Assembly: GCA_022732315.1 (NCBI GenBank)
Contig: JAIJUV010000123.1
Location: forward strand, 1-7,278
DNA length: 7,278 nt
Direction of reading: 5' to 3'
Source: Prevotella sp.
Lineage (GTDB): Bacteria > Bacteroidota > Bacteroidia > Bacteroidales > Bacteroidaceae
A program made the translations under genes and the position numbers. This document shows, in pieces, positions 351 through 7,278 of the stretch (its first letter is position 1; every line of letters begins with the position of its first letter). A model generated the notes under the pieces. That model was not told the origin of the DNA and ran no database searches. It saw only the letters and a list, made by a program, of their open reading frames with translations.

Positions 351-436
351 ATGAAGTCCGATATTGGCTATATTGGATAGATTTCTGTCGTAACTTCTAA
401 AGAGATGGTGGCAGACCCACCGCATTCGGCATACAG
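351..436 (+). pseudogene. degenerate 5' coding remnant upstream of the intron
   Basis: An ATG at 351 lies at the right distance from the promoter at 291-324. The frame reads MKSDIGYIG and then hits a TAG at 378-380. If that stop is ignored, the frame stays open (ISVVTSKEMVADPPHSAY) up to the inferred intron boundary at 437. This is compatible with the 5' exon of a gene, possibly a transposase, that took a nonsense mutation and an intron insertion. The family is not recognised, and this could also be non-coding sequence. Confidence 0.25.
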
Positions 437-806
437 GTGCTGATTGTAAACCACTTTGTGCTGCTCTGATGGAAACAGATGGGTAGTGAACGACAATAGA
501 AAGTCTTCCGTAAGGTTGGCAAGGTATTTGTCAAGGAGATGAACGCAAGTGAACCATTGATGAAGCATCGTTAGCAAAGTTATCAAGTCACATCAGAACC
601 AAGGTGTTTGGGGGAATCTTAGGATAATGGAAGAGGAAACCTGTTTACTGTCTGCTGGGTGTGCGGTGTATAGGTGGCATGAACTTGACATAGGCTCTTT
701 AGAGGAACTGGAGAAATAGACATGGAATGCTAAGGGAAAATGCCGAGAGCCGTGACACGCAAGGCAGAAAGTATTGATGTCCATGTCTGTGGCGGATTAC
801 CTCACA

Positions 807-1164: not shown

Positions 1165-1281
1165 CCCCTGATTTACACTAAACTTTAATGGTCTTGCCCC
1201 TGATTTGCAACAAACTTTAACGCTGTTGCCGCTGATTTGCGACAAAAAAGTAGTGTCTTTGCCCCTGATTTGAAACAAATG
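1165..1281 (+). repeat. tandem repeat, four copies, 32-33 bp period
   Basis: Copies start at 1165, 1197, 1229 and 1262. Each opens with CCCCTGATTTG or a close variant (CCCCTGATTTA, CCGCTGATTTG), followed by a more variable A/C-rich part such as CAACAAACTTTAA. The first copy begins three bases after the inferred 3' end of the intron and the last runs into the ATG at 1279. There are no unique spacers, so it is not a CRISPR array. The regular spacing in front of a start codon suggests either a protein-binding array or a repeat tied to the neighbouring ATPase remnant; both are inference. Confidence 0.75.
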
Positions 1282-3241: not shown

Positions 3242-4633
3242 CTATTTCAACCCGTCGGCATCGCCTGTGGTCTTCAATCCGTTGCTCTTCTCTCTAGGGG
3301 TGATATTCACTTTCTTCGCCACGGTGTTCTCGATGAGATTGGCATCGAATGCCATCTTCTTGTCGGTGCAGGTGATGTCTTCGAAGGTGAAATCCACCAG
3401 ACGATATTTCTCGCTCTTGGCAACATCGAAGAAGTTGTCGCAATCCATCTGGATGTTCTTCATCGTGATGTTGTTGCACTGGCTCAACGGCATGTCCTTG
3501 CGGTCGCCCGGCTTGAAGAACTGGGTCCATGGGCGGATGACGAGGAAACTGCCTGTGATGCCCTGGATGTTATCCACCGTTACGTACTCGTAATGCTGAG
3601 GCGTATCAGGGCGCATCTTCAGCCAGAGCACGCGCTGTGCCTTATCTACCTTGATGTTGCGGAGCACGATGTTGCGGTCTTTCACACTTTCGCTGCCAAG
3701 AGTCAGACAGCCATGCACGGTTCCATAATGGCAGTTCTGGATGAGCACGTTATATACAGGACCATTCTCTGGTGCCTGGTCAGCCCAGGTTCCCTTACCG
3801 CCCTTGATGGCGATGGCATCATCGTTTACGCTCATGTAGCAGCCATCCACCAGCACATCGTGACAGACATCAATGTCGATGGCGTCGCTGCTTGGTGCCC
3901 GCATGCCACTGGTTGGGGCGAAGATGGTGCAACCCAGGAAGCGGACATGGTCGCAGCGATAGATGTGGTTGGTCCAGAACGGACTGTTCTGAATATGCAC
4001 ATCCTGCAAGGTTACGTTGCTTGAATTGCTGATATAGACGAGGCGAGGGCGCTGTGCATCCTTGTTGGTACACTGGCGGTTCCAGGTGCGACGAATCCAG
4101 AACTCCTCCCAGTAGTGATAACCGTTGCCATCGATGGTACCCGGACCGGCGATGGTGAAGCCATCACATTTGTCGGCATTGATGAAGGCTGAGAAATATT
4201 TGCAGGTCTCGCCCTCGATGCGGGTTTCTACTACTGGGAAGTTGGCGATGCGGTCGCTGCCTTTCAGTTTTCCGCCTTCTTCCAGATACAGGTGGGTTTT
4301 TGGCTTGAAGAAGAGGGCACCGCTCTGATAGGTTCCGGCAGGTACCACGATAACGCCACCGCCATCCTGGGCAGCACGGTCGATGACAGCCTGGATAGCC
4401 TTGGTCTGAATCAGGGTGCTATCCGCCTTTACACCATAGTCGGTGAGGACGTATTTCTTGCCCAGGGTATCCACATTTACCTTCTGGGCGTTTCTGAACC
4501 AGGCATCCATCTTTGTGCCATCAGGCCAAAGCTCGGTTTGTGCCTTCTTTGCTTTCTTCTGTTTCTTTGCGGCGTTGGCGCTTAGTGGAGAGAATGCCAC
4601 TAAGCAAGCCATCAGCCAAATATATTTCTTCAT
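3242..4633 (-). CDS. secreted GH28 family glycosidase (polygalacturonase / rhamnogalacturonan type)
   Basis: This 463-aa protein starts with a signal peptide (MKKYIWLMACLVAFSPLSANA, cleavage near residue 21-22) followed by a Lys/Ala-rich linker. The rest is the right-handed beta-helix of glycoside hydrolase family 28. FGVKADS-like TDYGVKADSTLIQTKAIQAV (64-83) and GGGVIVVPAGTY (91-102) are the usual N-terminal strands. The active-site signatures are SSDAID (D250), NDDAIAIK (D271, D272), VHG (H307) and the R334...LK339 pair equivalent to the RIK motif. GH28 enzymes hydrolyse alpha-1,4-galacturonosyl linkages in homogalacturonan or galacturonosyl-rhamnose linkages in rhamnogalacturonan by inversion. 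The GH106 and GH105 neighbours favour rhamnogalacturonan-I, but the motifs alone do not decide the substrate. It is the last gene before the terminator, and its 5' leader is A-rich. The ATG at 4633 gives the signal peptide directly. Confidence 0.92.
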   Translation of the reverse strand: MKKYIWLMACLVAFSPLSANAAKKQKKAKKAQTELWPDGTKMDAWFRNAQKVNVDTLGKKYVLTDYGVKADSTLIQTKAIQAVIDRAAQDGGGVIVVPAGTYQSGALFFKPKTHLYLEEGGKLKGSDRIANFPVVETRIEGETCKYFSAFINADKCDGFTIAGPGTIDGNGYHYWEEFWIRRTWNRQCTNKDAQRPRLVYISNSSNVTLQDVHIQNSPFWTNHIYRCDHVRFLGCTIFAPTSGMRAPSSDAIDIDVCHDVLVDGCYMSVNDDAIAIKGGKGTWADQAPENGPVYNVLIQNCHYGTVHGCLTLGSESVKDRNIVLRNIKVDKAQRVLWLKMRPDTPQHYEYVTVDNIQGITGSFLVIRPWTQFFKPGDRKDMPLSQCNNITMKNIQMDCDNFFDVAKSEKYRLVDFTFEDITCTDKKMAFDANLIENTVAKKVNITPREKSNGLKTTGDADGLK

Positions 4634-4668
4634 TTTTTCTTTTTTCTTTTTTACCTTTTTACTTTTTT
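4634..4668 (-). promoter_or_regulatory. A-tract leader upstream of GH28 start
   Basis: On the mRNA strand the 35 bases ahead of the GH28 ATG are nearly all purine, made of iterated A5-6 tracts separated by G or GT (for example GGTAAAAAAG and GAAAAAATG). No classical Shine-Dalgarno site is present. A-rich, unstructured leaders aid initiation in Bacteroidetes. Here it also separates the start codon from the strongly structured element just upstream, and such tracts are prone to length change. Confidence 0.6.
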
Positions 4669-4721
4669 ACTGAAGTTTCACAAGTAACCTCCGGTCCCCG
4701 AAGGGGGCCAACTTTCAATAA

Positions 4722-4758
4722 CCGCTGGTGGAATGACCGAAGGTCATGGAACCTGCGG
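4722..4758. repeat. hairpin B, left copy
   Basis: A palindromic module built from CCGC/GCGG, GGT/ACC and ATGACC/GGTCAT arms around a GAA loop, with mismatches between arms. Its inverted counterpart is at 4862-4898; over 37 bp the two differ at only a few positions, mostly in the central ATGACC/GGTCAT segment. Confidence 0.75.
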
Positions 4759-4861
4759 AGAACCAATAGTAGGGAGAAAGCGTCCCCGAAGGGGGCGAAC
4801 CACATCCAGTCTTGCTCCTGTTCGCCCCCTTTGGGGACGATAGAGAGAGTATATCTGCTAT

Positions 4862-4898
4862 CCGCAGGTTCCATTCCCTTTGGTCATTCCACCCGCGG
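4862..4898. repeat. hairpin B, right copy (inverted)
   Basis: The inverted copy of the module at 4722-4758, opening CCGCAGGTTCCATTCCC and closing GGTCATTCCACCCGCGG. It can fold on itself or pair with the left copy to make one long cruciform or stem across the element. Confidence 0.75.
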
Positions 4899-4948
4899 TT
4901 ATTCACATTCGCCCCCTTCGGGGACGGCAGGATGCTACTTGCGAAACT

Positions 4949-6076
4949 TCAGTTTTTTGCCTTTAAGAGCTTGTAGTATTCGGCTGCGCCGAGAAGGAGG
5001 CAACCTGTGCCGTAGTCCTCGAAGTCAGGAACTGAGGTGAAGGTGACAGGCTGACCGGCTGCTGGATCCTTTCCTGTGCCCTGGTTGTAGCCGATGAAGC
5101 CATCCTCATGAACCGATGCGGCAAGTGCCTTCCATGCTTTATCCATCGCTTTCTGATAGGTGGCTCTAGGAAGAATGCCCTGCTGAACACCCCATGCCAT
5201 ACCATAGAGGAAGAGACCAGTACCCGTCATTTCAGGACCGCCATAGTTGGCTGGACAAACGAGGCTTACGTTCCAATAACCATCCTCGCGCTGGCATTTC
5301 AGGATAGCCTTGCTCATAGAGATGAAGTCTTTCTTCAGATACTGATAGTACTTATCTTTCTTTGGCAAAGTCTCCATTACGCGGACCAGGGCTGCATATA
5401 CCCAACCGTTGCCACGGCTCCAGTAGCAGTTGCTGCCATCCTTCTCCTTGTAAGGTGGCACGTAGTCCTTGTCTCTCCACCAGAGACCTTCTTTCTTGTT
5501 AAAGAGACCGTTAGCCAAGGTGTCACGGCTCCATTTGTAGGAATTCATCGCATAATCCAGATACTTGCGCTCACCGGTAATCTTGGCATACTTGGCGTAG
5601 ACTGGCATCGCCATCTGGATAGCGTCAATCCAAGTCCAGTAGTTCACACACTTGGTGCTCATCTGGTGGTCCAGGTTCTCTTTCACCTTGCTCAAATCCT
5701 TCTTACCGCCGGTCTGAACGTAGCGGTCTATGTAGGTCTGCTGGCAGCACTGGTTGTCGGCATCGGTATCGTTCACGCTGCCACGGGCTGTCCACTTGTG
5801 GTAATCCGCCCATTTGTCAGTGTAGTCGAGATAGCGCTGCTGAGGGTCAATCTCGTAAAGCGCCATCAATCCCTCGTAGTACACGGCACGGGTCCAGAGG
5901 TTGCTGGTGCGGATTTTCTTTACGAATGTGTCGAGGGTAGGGTCACTGTACTTCGTCATGAAGTAGTTGTTGGTACGATGGGCTACCTCCAGAATTTCAT
6001 TTTGCAATGCGTTCTGGGCAGAAATTGAAGTCAAACCCAGGAGCATGAAGAGCGATGAAAAGATCAGTTTTTTCAT
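4949..6076 (-). CDS. GH105 unsaturated rhamnogalacturonyl hydrolase
   Basis: A 375-aa exported enzyme of glycoside hydrolase family 105 (YteR/YesR type). Residues 1-20 are a signal peptide (MKKLIFSSLFMLLGLTSISA). The (alpha/alpha)6-barrel shows the family signposts: WTRAVYYEGLMALYEI (61-76), the catalytic segment WTWIDAIQMAMPVYAKYA with D151 as likely general acid, WSRGNGW (219-225), CQREDGYW (261-268), PEMTGTGLFLYGMAWG (281-296) and FEDYGTGCLLLGAAEYYKL near the end. It removes the 4,5-unsaturated galacturonyl residue that polysaccharide lyases leave on rhamnogalacturonan or other pectin fragments. The start at 6076 was chosen because the signal peptide begins there; the longer in-frame extension to 6355 overlaps GH106 and has no family resemblance. 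The TGA stop (4951-4949) lies inside the terminal repeat of the adjacent palindromic element, so the last residues (KAKN) may be new. Confidence 0.92.
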   Translation of the reverse strand: MKKLIFSSLFMLLGLTSISAQNALQNEILEVAHRTNNYFMTKYSDPTLDTFVKKIRTSNLWTRAVYYEGLMALYEIDPQQRYLDYTDKWADYHKWTARGSVNDTDADNQCCQQTYIDRYVQTGGKKDLSKVKENLDHQMSTKCVNYWTWIDAIQMAMPVYAKYAKITGERKYLDYAMNSYKWSRDTLANGLFNKKEGLWWRDKDYVPPYKEKDGSNCYWSRGNGWVYAALVRVMETLPKKDKYYQYLKKDFISMSKAILKCQREDGYWNVSLVCPANYGGPEMTGTGLFLYGMAWGVQQGILPRATYQKAMDKAWKALAASVHEDGFIGYNQGTGKDPAAGQPVTFTSVPDFEDYGTGCLLLGAAEYYKLLKAKN

Positions 6077-6105: not shown

Positions 6106-7278
6106 TTATTTGATTTCCACGAGTTTCACGGTGCTGTTCAGTCCGCTTGGCACAGGAGTCCATTTCTCGTAGGTGGTCTTCTTGTAGTTGATGTCCACCA
6201 CGTTGATTTCCTTCATCTTGCGCCACTTTACACCTTGACGGTCCATTTCTGCTATGCGGTTGGCTGGCAGGTTGGTAACCTCGATGCGGAGGGTATTCTT
6301 GCCCTTTACCAGCTTGTCCTGGCAGTTGAGGATGTAAGGCACAGCCCAGGCGCAACCCACGTACTCGCCGTTGATATAGACACGGGCACTCTCGCGAACA
6401 TCACCCAGGTCGATGGCCCACTGCTTCTTGGCATCATCCTTCGACAGCTTGATGGTGGTTTCGTAAACACCTGTTCCCATCATCACCTTCGCCTTGTCGC
6501 TGAGGCCTTCCCAAGACTTCACGCCCTTCAGGTTGAAGGTTTCGCCCACCTTTGGAGCATCCTCGGTGAACGACAGCTTCCAGGTATTTGCGGTCAGGTC
6601 GATGGTCTTGCTATCCGCAGCAGCGATGGCTTCCTTGCCGCCCACCTTCACCTTAGAACCGAGCTTCCACTCGTTCACTGGCTTATTCGATGTGATGAGG
6701 ATGCGGCTCTCGCCACTCTTCAGGTTCAGCTGGATACCCTTGTCGCCGATGGTAGCCTCGTGATATTCGCCCGTCATAGGGTTATACCAGATGCCATGCT
6801 TCTCGTTCACGGCTAAAGCCACGCCAGAGGCGATGTCCTTGCTGGTGAGGTTGGCGATGAAGTAATGATGACCGATGCTGTTGGCACGTCGAATCATCTT
6901 CAAGCCCAGGTTCTTTCTCATCAGTTCCGGTTTTGCCGCCTGTTCCATTGCCTTGATATTATCGCCCTTGATAATCTTGGCACCTTGTGATTTCAATTCT
7001 GATATGTGCTCAATCACGTCGCTTGGCATGATGTTGTTGCCAGGAATGATGATACCTTTGTATCGGGTTCCGGCAGCTGTTTCAATCATGCCGTTTTTAA
7101 AGGTACACGTGCGAAGGTACTTGTCGCTGATGTAATCGCAGTCGAATCCTGCCTTGTCGATGTCGAGAATCACCTTGATAAACTCAGGTGCTTTCTTCGC
7201 CATGCTGTGGATATCGAATTGCATCAGCCAGTTTTTGGTATCCTTGCGCCACATATCTCTTACTGGCAGATAAACCAG
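6106..7278 (-). CDS. GH106 alpha-L-rhamnosidase, C-terminal part (5' end outside window)
   Basis: An open frame of 390 codons runs in from the right edge and stops at TAA 6108-6106. It begins LVYLPVRDMW, like the YLP..D.W segment of GH106 enzymes. The visible part contains a Rossmann-like section (about residues 28-110, with YKGIIIPGNNIMP), the segment GLKMIRRANSIGHHYFIANLT (about 125-145), and a galactose-binding-like beta-sandwich (about 265-340, with RVYINGEYVGCAWAVPYIL and LRIEVTNLPANRIAEMDRQG). It ends PVPSGL.., matching the family's PLPSGLLGPV end. GH106 proteins are about 1000 aa or more, so most of the protein including the catalytic domain lies outside. The family removes alpha-L-rhamnose from pectic rhamnogalacturonan. 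The next gene starts 29 bp downstream, which indicates one transcript. Confidence 0.85.
   Translation of the reverse strand: MVYLPVRDMWRKDTKNWLMQFDIHSMAKKAPEFIKVILDIDKAGFDCDYISDKYLRTCTFKNGMIETAAGTRYKGIIIPGNNIMPSDVIEHISELKSQGAKIIKGDNIKAMEQAAKPELMRKNLGLKMIRRANSIGHHYFIANLTSKDIASGVALAVNEKHGIWYNPMTGEYHEATIGDKGIQLNLKSGESRILITSNKPVNEWKLGSKVKVGGKEAIAAADSKTIDLTANTWKLSFTEDAPKVGETFNLKGVKSWEGLSDKAKVMMGTGVYETTIKLSKDDAKKQWAIDLGDVRESARVYINGEYVGCAWAVPYILNCQDKLVKGKNTLRIEVTNLPANRIAEMDRQGVKWRKMKEINVVDINYKKTTYEKWTPVPSGLNSTVKLVEIK

What the first reader, a model, noticed from the sequence alone, without database searches (positions are those of the whole stretch)
4669..4953. MITE-like palindromic element inserted inside a pectin-degradation operon
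The whole GH105-GH28 gap is an inverted repeat with 20 bp termini (two mismatches), internal order A-B-A / A'-B'-A', and T5 flanks. It encodes no protein. That combination fits a non-autonomous transposable element or a REPIN-like palindrome mobilised in trans. Seen directly: the repeats and their symmetry. Inferred: mobility and target duplication, since a T-run is weak evidence.
Basis: partly seen in the sequence, partly recalled or inferred. Interest (0 to 1): 0.75.

Follow-up and report, generated by a model that had tools for sequence, protein, structure and literature searches.

The report
Hairpin jumping element with borrowed ends
A 283-base DNA hairpin that makes no protein has jumped between two pectin-digestion genes of a gut Segatella; its tips match a cut-and-paste transposon and its middle resembles the arms found around a different, single-strand transposase, so it looks like one kind of mobile element packed inside another.

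Summary
In detail: 4669-4953 is a full-length inverted repeat (fold z -16.9) with 20-bp ends differing at two places. Exact bounds are 4670-4952, flanked by a 7-bp duplication with one mismatch (TTTTTTA/TTTTTTG). Three relatives have the uninterrupted site, and the insertion replaced the GH105 stop codon.

The MITE reading is supported. A 95% copy lies on a Segatella copri plasmid. The end CTGAAGTTTCGCAAGT also ends 1.6-kb IS4-family elements, two with perfect 8-bp duplications. Of 69 candidate MITEs with this end, 32 have 7-8-bp duplications.

The core (A-B-A arm, 19-nt loop, inverted arm) is not IS4-derived. Arms of the same plan flank IS200-like Y1 transposase genes in related genomes. In G047 a MITE matches such an element minus its gene. 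In G006 the core lies between a different end, with duplications at 12 of 13 copies. These Y1 proteins carry the signature of TnpAY1 subclass 1.2, described in 2018 as generally lacking IS200-type end structures.

Not shown: activity of either enzyme, or their presence in the window's genome, which is not held.

The parts
4670..4952 (.). the whole element, 283 bp, full-length imperfect palindrome
4663..4669 (.). left copy of the 7-bp target duplication, TTTTTTA
   Evidence: empty site in relatives
4953..4959 (.). right copy of the duplication, TTTTTTG (one mismatch)
4670..4686 (+). left terminal repeat CTGAAGTTTCACAAGTA
   Evidence: 15 of its first 16 bases match the right end of the IS in L112
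4936..4952 (-). right terminal repeat, CTGAAGTTTCGCAAGTA on the minus strand; first 16 bases identical to the right end of the IS in L112
4692..4800 (+). left arm: hairpin A (from 4694), hairpin B (4722-4758), hairpin A (4781-4799)
4801..4819 (.). 19-nt loop between the arms, where the Y1 gene lies in the armed Y1 elements of other genomes
   Evidence: for the comparison
4820..4927 (-). right arm: A' (4821-4839), B' (4862-4898), A' (4908-4926)
4949..4951 (-). TGA stop codon of the GH105 gene, supplied by the terminal repeat; three relatives use TAA after a different C-terminus
4949..6076 (-). upstream gene, Pfam Glyco_hydro_88 (GH105 of the finding)
3242..4633 (-). downstream gene, GH28

Best explanation
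A non-autonomous transposable element with two layers. Outer layer: terminal repeats of an IS4-family DDE transposon and a 7-8-bp target duplication (shown by comparison), so the last move into the GH105-GH28 gap was most likely made in trans by an IS4-family transposase acting on the ends (inferred). Inner layer: two inverted A-B-A multi-hairpin arms around a 19-nt loop, on the plan of the arms that flank IS200-like Y1 transposase genes in related genomes. The core is therefore most likely a gene-less, REPIN-like derivative of such a Y1 element (shown by alignment for a sister element in genome G047; inferred by homology for the window). The core also occurs under a second kind of end, so it appears able to be carried by different DDE transposons. 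In the host it lies between two genes read in one direction, would be read into their mRNA as a strong hairpin (inferred) and supplies the stop codon of the upstream gene (shown).
For: Strong palindrome. Empty site in L001, L002, L003. Copy elsewhere on a plasmid with its own 8-bp duplication, one mismatch. End shared with IS4-family ISs: of 25 loci scanned, five (L090, L091, L095, L096, L112) have it at both ends with at most 4 mismatches in total, 1586-1601 bp; L250 has a variant; L090 and L091 have perfect 8-bp duplications. 14-mer end in 29 of 398 genomes, 78 places by my sum, control 11. 32 of 69 candidate MITEs with 7-8-bp duplications, 0 of 8 false pairs inside IS loci, shuffle means 1.9 and 0.5. 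Arms at Y1 genes; 14 of 24 scorable Y---Q--HH loci against 1 of 6 other Y1 loci and 0 of 400 random placements. G047 MITE L069 against its own Y1 element: 97% over 144 nt including the end, 87.5% over 96 nt on the other side, gene missing. Window element against the G006 Y1 arm: 75% over 69 nt, E 3e-8. Core under a second end with duplications at 12 of 13.
Against: The window's genome is not held, so neither enzyme was looked for there. The window duplication has a mismatch and lies in a T-tract. 37 of 69 candidate MITEs show no duplication and four of six ISs show none. MITE-bearing G047, G011, G044 and G226 had no IS4 relative at E 1e-10; G219 and G089 did, and in the G089 one (L103) I found no such ends. 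10 of 24 signature Y1 loci lack the arms by my measure. The gene-less copy of G213 does not match its own Y1 arms, and that of G310 matches one of two Y1 loci. The G047 armed Y1 element has no clear duplication (by eye). No Y1 gene with arms close to the window's was found.
Confidence: 0.75

Rival explanations
1. A plain IS4-type MITE: the IS4 transposase moves it, the hairpin core is incidental filler, and the likeness to Y1 arms means only that Y1 elements and MITEs nest in each other now and then.
For: One end carries interiors of 19 groups by blastn at E 1e-5, several without strong folds. Duplications point to a DDE enzyme.
Against: The same core plan recurs at Y1 genes and as gene-less copies matching their own Y1 arms in G047, G044, G006 and one of two loci in G310, and under a second end in G006.
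Confidence: 0.17
2. A true REPIN/BIME moved only by a Y1 (RAYT-type) transposase; the ends and duplications are accidents of insertion sites.
For: Inverted hairpin arms, dispersed gene-less copies, Y1 genes with the same arm plan.
Against: Ends identical to those of an IS4-family IS over 16 nt, empty sites and duplications far above the control; Y1 enzymes are not known to make target duplications (recalled). The four Y1 proteins tested stay below the curated cut-off of the REP-associated transposase model.
Confidence: 0.05
3. Not a mobile element but a regulatory or terminator structure of the operon.
For: Very strong fold; it lies between two genes read in the same direction.
Against: Absent from the same place in L001, L002 and L003; a 95% copy lies beside unrelated plasmid genes; terminator-like sites 3 against 1.1 (sd 1.1) in shuffles, the two on the operon strand without a long U-run; the only Rfam match over it is far below its gathering score.
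Confidence: 0.03

Closest known systems
MITEs of Porphyromonas gingivalis (BrickBuilt, MITEPgRS/464, MITE239, MITE700) with ends shared with IS5-family ISs (PMC4596501, passages)
   Same: Non-coding, ends shared with an IS, interiors unrelated to the transposase and to each other
   Different: Here the IS family is IS4, duplications were tested, and the core is a double three-hairpin arm like those at Y1 genes
REPIN / BIME with RAYT (TnpAREP) (passages and sections of PMC3733652 and PMC6006769)
   Same: Two inverted hairpin units around a short loop, dispersed, with a Y1 transposase gene flanked by like units
   Different: Each arm has three hairpins and about 109 nt; no GTAG foot; bounded by DDE-type ends with duplications; the Y1 proteins fit the IS200/IS605 model rather than the REP-associated one
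TIRtrons / TIRYT (PMC3733652 section 16)
   Same: A Y1 transposase gene between terminal inverted repeats, with dispersed copies of the repeats
   Different: In G047 the outer repeat matches ends of an IS4-family IS; the described TIRtrons are not tied to a DDE transposon in the text I saw
TnpAY1 subclass 1.2 (PMC6006769 section 18)
   Same: Y---Q--HH signature, Bacteroidota
   Different: Described as generally without IS200-type end structures; here 14 of 24 scorable loci with the signature have inverted arms
CGTC-tagged REPs (PMC3733652, passages)
   Same: The A unit is a small hairpin starting CGTC
   Different: Described stems begin with complementary AT and tails fit CCA; not seen here; not filed as a member
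PINSR, the 188-bp repeat of Prevotella intermedia (PMC4755523, passages)
   Same: Dispersed intergenic repeat of Prevotella
   Different: Described as lacking terminal inverted repeats

Membership tests
MITE of an IS4-family element | short, no transposase gene | tested here: met
   283 bp; no gene-like ORF
MITE of an IS4-family element | terminal inverted repeats shared with an autonomous IS | tested here: met
   first 16 nt of the right end identical to the right end of L112; transposase NCBIfam IS4 E 7e-112
MITE of an IS4-family element | target duplication and empty site | tested here: met
   TTTTTTA/TTTTTTG, 6 of 7; three empty sites
MITE of an IS4-family element | dispersed copies | tested here: met
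   one full copy and one shorter copy on the HDE06 plasmid; copies in the window's own genome not testable
MITE of an IS4-family element | moved by the IS4 transposase | not testable with these tools
   needs an experiment
REPIN / RAYT | inverted pair of hairpin units around a short loop | tested here: met
REPIN / RAYT | like units flank a Y1 transposase gene | tested here: met
   in related genomes only; window species not tested
REPIN / RAYT | GT[AG]G foot of canonical REPs | tested here: not met
   no such foot in the A units (by eye)
REPIN / RAYT | Y1 protein passes the REP-associated transposase model | tested here: not met
   0 of 4 Y1 proteins reach its cut-off; 3 of 4 pass the IS200/IS605 model
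TnpAY1 subclass 1.2 (partner genes in other genomes) | Y---Q--HH signature | tested here: met
   25 of 33 readable Y1 loci, including the armed ones of G047, G044, G006, G310 and G213
TnpAY1 subclass 1.2 (partner genes in other genomes) | specific C-terminal domain and clustering with the published set | not tested
   published profiles not at hand
CGTC REP | AT pairs at the base of the stem and a CCA tail | tested here: not met
   sequence; definition from passages

The most novel reading that the evidence does not exclude
Y1 proteins of TnpAY1 subclass 1.2 in Bacteroidota, described without IS200-type ends, act on three-hairpin A-B-A arms and give rise to gene-less inverted dimers. These dimers have repeatedly been enclosed by the ends of unrelated DDE transposons, giving two-engine elements: a single-strand transposase makes and maintains the core, a cut-and-paste transposase spreads it.
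Probability: 0.35. Interest if true: 0.8.

Novelty: new variant of a known kind. Interest (0 to 1): 0.6.

Why it matters
It offers a candidate DNA partner for a transposase subclass described in 2018 as generally lacking IS200-type ends, and shows how REPIN-like hairpins may travel under the ends of ordinary transposons. Some genomes of this genus hold many of these ends (152 places within one mismatch in one 2.5-Mb genome, control 6), so they bear on operon read-through, stop-codon changes, assembly breaks and spurious gene calls in an abundant human gut group.

Tried and rejected
Rfam at a lax threshold gave over the element only a microRNA family far below its gathering score (53 against 137 bits), taken as a long-hairpin chance match. 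Viral contigs: the 18-mer end pattern hit 7 contigs, none with a second inverted end within 2 mismatches; two core patterns gave none. Phages and E. coli genomes: no match. A DNA search of 200 genomes with the whole element found only G006; the terminal repeat was the better probe. CGTC-REP membership was considered and rejected. ORFs beside the end hits looked like ordinary neighbouring genes by eye, except the transposase of L057. A plasmid search with the G006 Y1 protein gave 559 records, all under 60% identity; none of the 15 rows listed is Segatella, 544 were not listed. A match of the G213 gene-less copy to its Y1 locus was first read as an arm match; it lies beside another copy further on, not at the arms, so G213 counts against.

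Papers: searches showed no description of this end or of arms at subclass 1.2 genes; the library is open access only. Seen: PMC3733652 abstract, passages, section 16; PMC6006769 passages, sections 12 and 18; PMC4755523, PMC4596501 and PMC5771137 passages only.

Row handling: of 77 called end pairs, 8 lie inside IS loci and were set aside. Y1 loci were the top-scoring ones the tool offered plus those of 12 chosen genomes, not a random draw; 6 of 34 loci truncated and unscored, leaving 28, of which 14 reach 20 nt; of 41 loci, 8 had no readable HuH..Y frame and 3 more were truncated, leaving 30; two pairs of the armed loci come from the same genome (G047, G310). The 19 arms were cut out with patterns that contain A-unit letters, so the presence of A hairpins there is partly by construction. 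The 12 of 13 allows lengths 7, 8 or 9 and one mismatch, without a shuffle control.

Full report
What was checked. The window reads as Segatella/Prevotella: its GH105 protein is 97% identical (best segment) to one of Segatella copri iA622. On the minus strand lie a glycoside-hydrolase-like gene (6106-7278), the GH105 gene (Pfam Glyco_hydro_88, 4949-6076) and GH28 (3242-4633). The gap between the last two holds the reported inverted repeat as described, with a fold far beyond shuffles.

Exact ends and insertion. Comparing end pairs from many genomes puts the element at 4670-4952 (CTGAAG...CTTCAG), with TTTTTTA before and TTTTTTG after it. With one duplication copy kept, the joined flanks align without a gap across the junction to L001, L002 and L003, so the site is empty there. 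In L002 and L003 the sequence seen there is a TTTTTACC-like array; L001 has further unrelated sequence beside the site. The insertion changed the end of the upstream gene: the three relatives end KLVKGKK, KLLKVKR and KLLKVKK before TAA; the window ends KLLKAKN before a TGA that lies in the terminal repeat.

Other copies. Plasmid NZ_CP137558 of S. copri HDE06 carries a 95% full-length copy with its own duplication (TACCTTAA/TACCTTCA) and a 195-bp copy that lacks the stretch between two A units and shows no duplication. Phage records and E. coli genomes gave no match.

The ends belong with an IS4-family transposon. The 14-mer AAGTTTCGCAAGTA occurs in 29 of 398 genomes drawn from the genus: 78 places by my sum of the printed counts, against 11 for the backward control. 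A 13-mer with one mismatch allowed gives 32 to 152 places in six of seven genomes against 4 to 6 for the control, and 0 against 5 in G006. Behind one such end lies a DDE transposase (L057: NCBIfam IS4 E 3e-104, Pfam DDE_5 E 5e-11). 19 of 200 genomes had a relative of it at E 1e-30. Of 25 loci scanned, five have the end on both sides at IS length with at most 4 mismatches in total (L090, L091, L095, L096, L112); L250 has a variant. These six are 1586-1601 bp; L090 and L091 have perfect 8-bp duplications, the other four none. The window core has no similarity to these loci at E 1.

MITE census. In the loci fetched, 77 end pairs were called; 8 lie inside IS loci, leaving 69 candidate MITEs. 32 of the 69 have a 7- or 8-bp duplication with at most one mismatch, 0 of the 8 do; shuffled right flanks gave means of 1.9 (7 bp) and 0.5 (8 bp) of 77. 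Their interiors fall in 19 groups at E 1e-5, some of them short singletons. In a first set of 23 pairs, the interior without the ends has a fold z below -2.5 in 19, against 40 shuffles each; one of the other four was too short to score.

The core plan belongs with Y1 transposases. The A unit GTCCCCGAAGGGGGC occurs in 7 of 398 genomes, with 10 to 34 places in five of them and control 0; none of the seven has the window's 14-bp end. Y1 genes (Pfam PF01797) in G310, G213, G006, G044 and G047 are flanked by inverted arms of the A-B-A plan. In the wider set, 14 of 24 scorable loci with the Y---Q--HH signature share at least 20 nt of inverted 11-mers between their flanks, against 1 of 6 other Y1 loci and 0 of 400 random placements, the largest of which was 13 nt. 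The set is the tool's top hits plus chosen genomes, not random. By NCBIfam, 3 of 4 of these Y1 proteins pass the IS200/IS605 model and 0 of 4 the REP-associated one.

Gene-less copies against the Y1 arms of their own genome: G047 97% over 144 nt, G044 88% over 102, G006 79-80% over 101, G310 84% over 105 at one Y1 locus and nothing at the other; in G213 the only matches lie beside the arms, at another copy. In G047 one Y1 gene with its arms lies between two copies of the MITE end (AAGTTTCGCATGT), and MITE L069 matches that element on both sides of the gene, which it lacks. That Y1 element shows no clear duplication by eye; for the second G047 Y1 copy and the two G044 ones only one side's end was found. 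The window element matches the G006 Y1 arm at 75% over 69 nt, E 3e-8. In 19 arms cut out for comparison, 37 of 38 A units form a hairpin of at least 4 bp, with stems that change on both sides together (CCCC/GGGG, CCTC/GAGG, GCCCT/AGGGC), and B stems differ likewise; the cutting patterns contain A-unit letters, so only the stem changes are informative.

A second set of ends. In G006 the core lies between GGTTCATCCGCA repeats (30 places, control 0); 12 of 13 such elements have a 7-9-bp duplication with at most one mismatch, 9 of them 8 bp (no shuffle run). The G006 Y1 gene has arms, but no place of that pattern lies at it. So arms and ends are separable, and the core occurs under at least two kinds of end. 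That the second is DDE-type is inferred from the duplications alone.

How it most likely works. An IS4-family transposase in trans recognises the 17-bp ends and inserts the element at a T/A-rich site with a 7-8-bp duplication (inferred from ends and duplications). The core arose as a gene-less derivative of a Y1 element (alignment in G047; inferred for the window). Whether a Y1 enzyme still acts on it is open. The stop-codon change is shown; effects on the mRNA are inferred.

Novelty. MITEs with ends shared with an IS and unrelated interiors are known in P. gingivalis (PMC4596501, passages). REPINs and TIRtrons are known (PMC3733652). Subclass 1.2 Y1 proteins were described as generally without IS200-type end structures (PMC6006769 section 18). 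The eight paper searches named under Tried and rejected showed no report of such arms at these genes, nor of REPIN-like cores inside IS4-type ends; this covers open-access papers only.

Noticed in passing
window 407-524 and 1087-1161: Rfam group II intron matches above their gathering scores (D1-D4 68.3 bits, Intron_gpII 44.8 bits); the 560 nt between them hold no full reverse transcriptase frame in the ORF list, so it looks like a gene-less or decayed intron.
   Followed up: no
window 1165-1280: A 32-nt tandem repeat (CCCCTGATTTGCAACAAAC type, 2.6 copies by TRF; three copies) starts just after the intron match.
   Followed up: no
L002 4740-4903: A 164-bp element with the same end but a different interior (AGTTAAAGGAG type) and a 7-bp duplication lies near the start of the GH105 gene of a related MAG.
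   Followed up: partly
L220, L227, L230 (G213, G310): Core copies with stretches like GGTTCTTCCGG outside them, perhaps a further variant of the G006 end; seen by eye in a few loci only.
   Followed up: partly
L041, inner side of the element: Hairpin arms read through as long spurious frames (peptides such as PRALPWA); I recall like peptides among annotated small proteins of other genomes, from no call.
   Followed up: no
L007: A contig titled Parabacteroides distasonis An863 carries a GH105 gene 77% identical to the window's and GH28 DNA matching at 72%: mixed assembly or transfer.
   Followed up: no
L032, L033 (S. copri plasmid NZ_CP137558): The plasmid with the element copies also lists several other transposases and a predicted macrolide resistance gene.
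   Followed up: no
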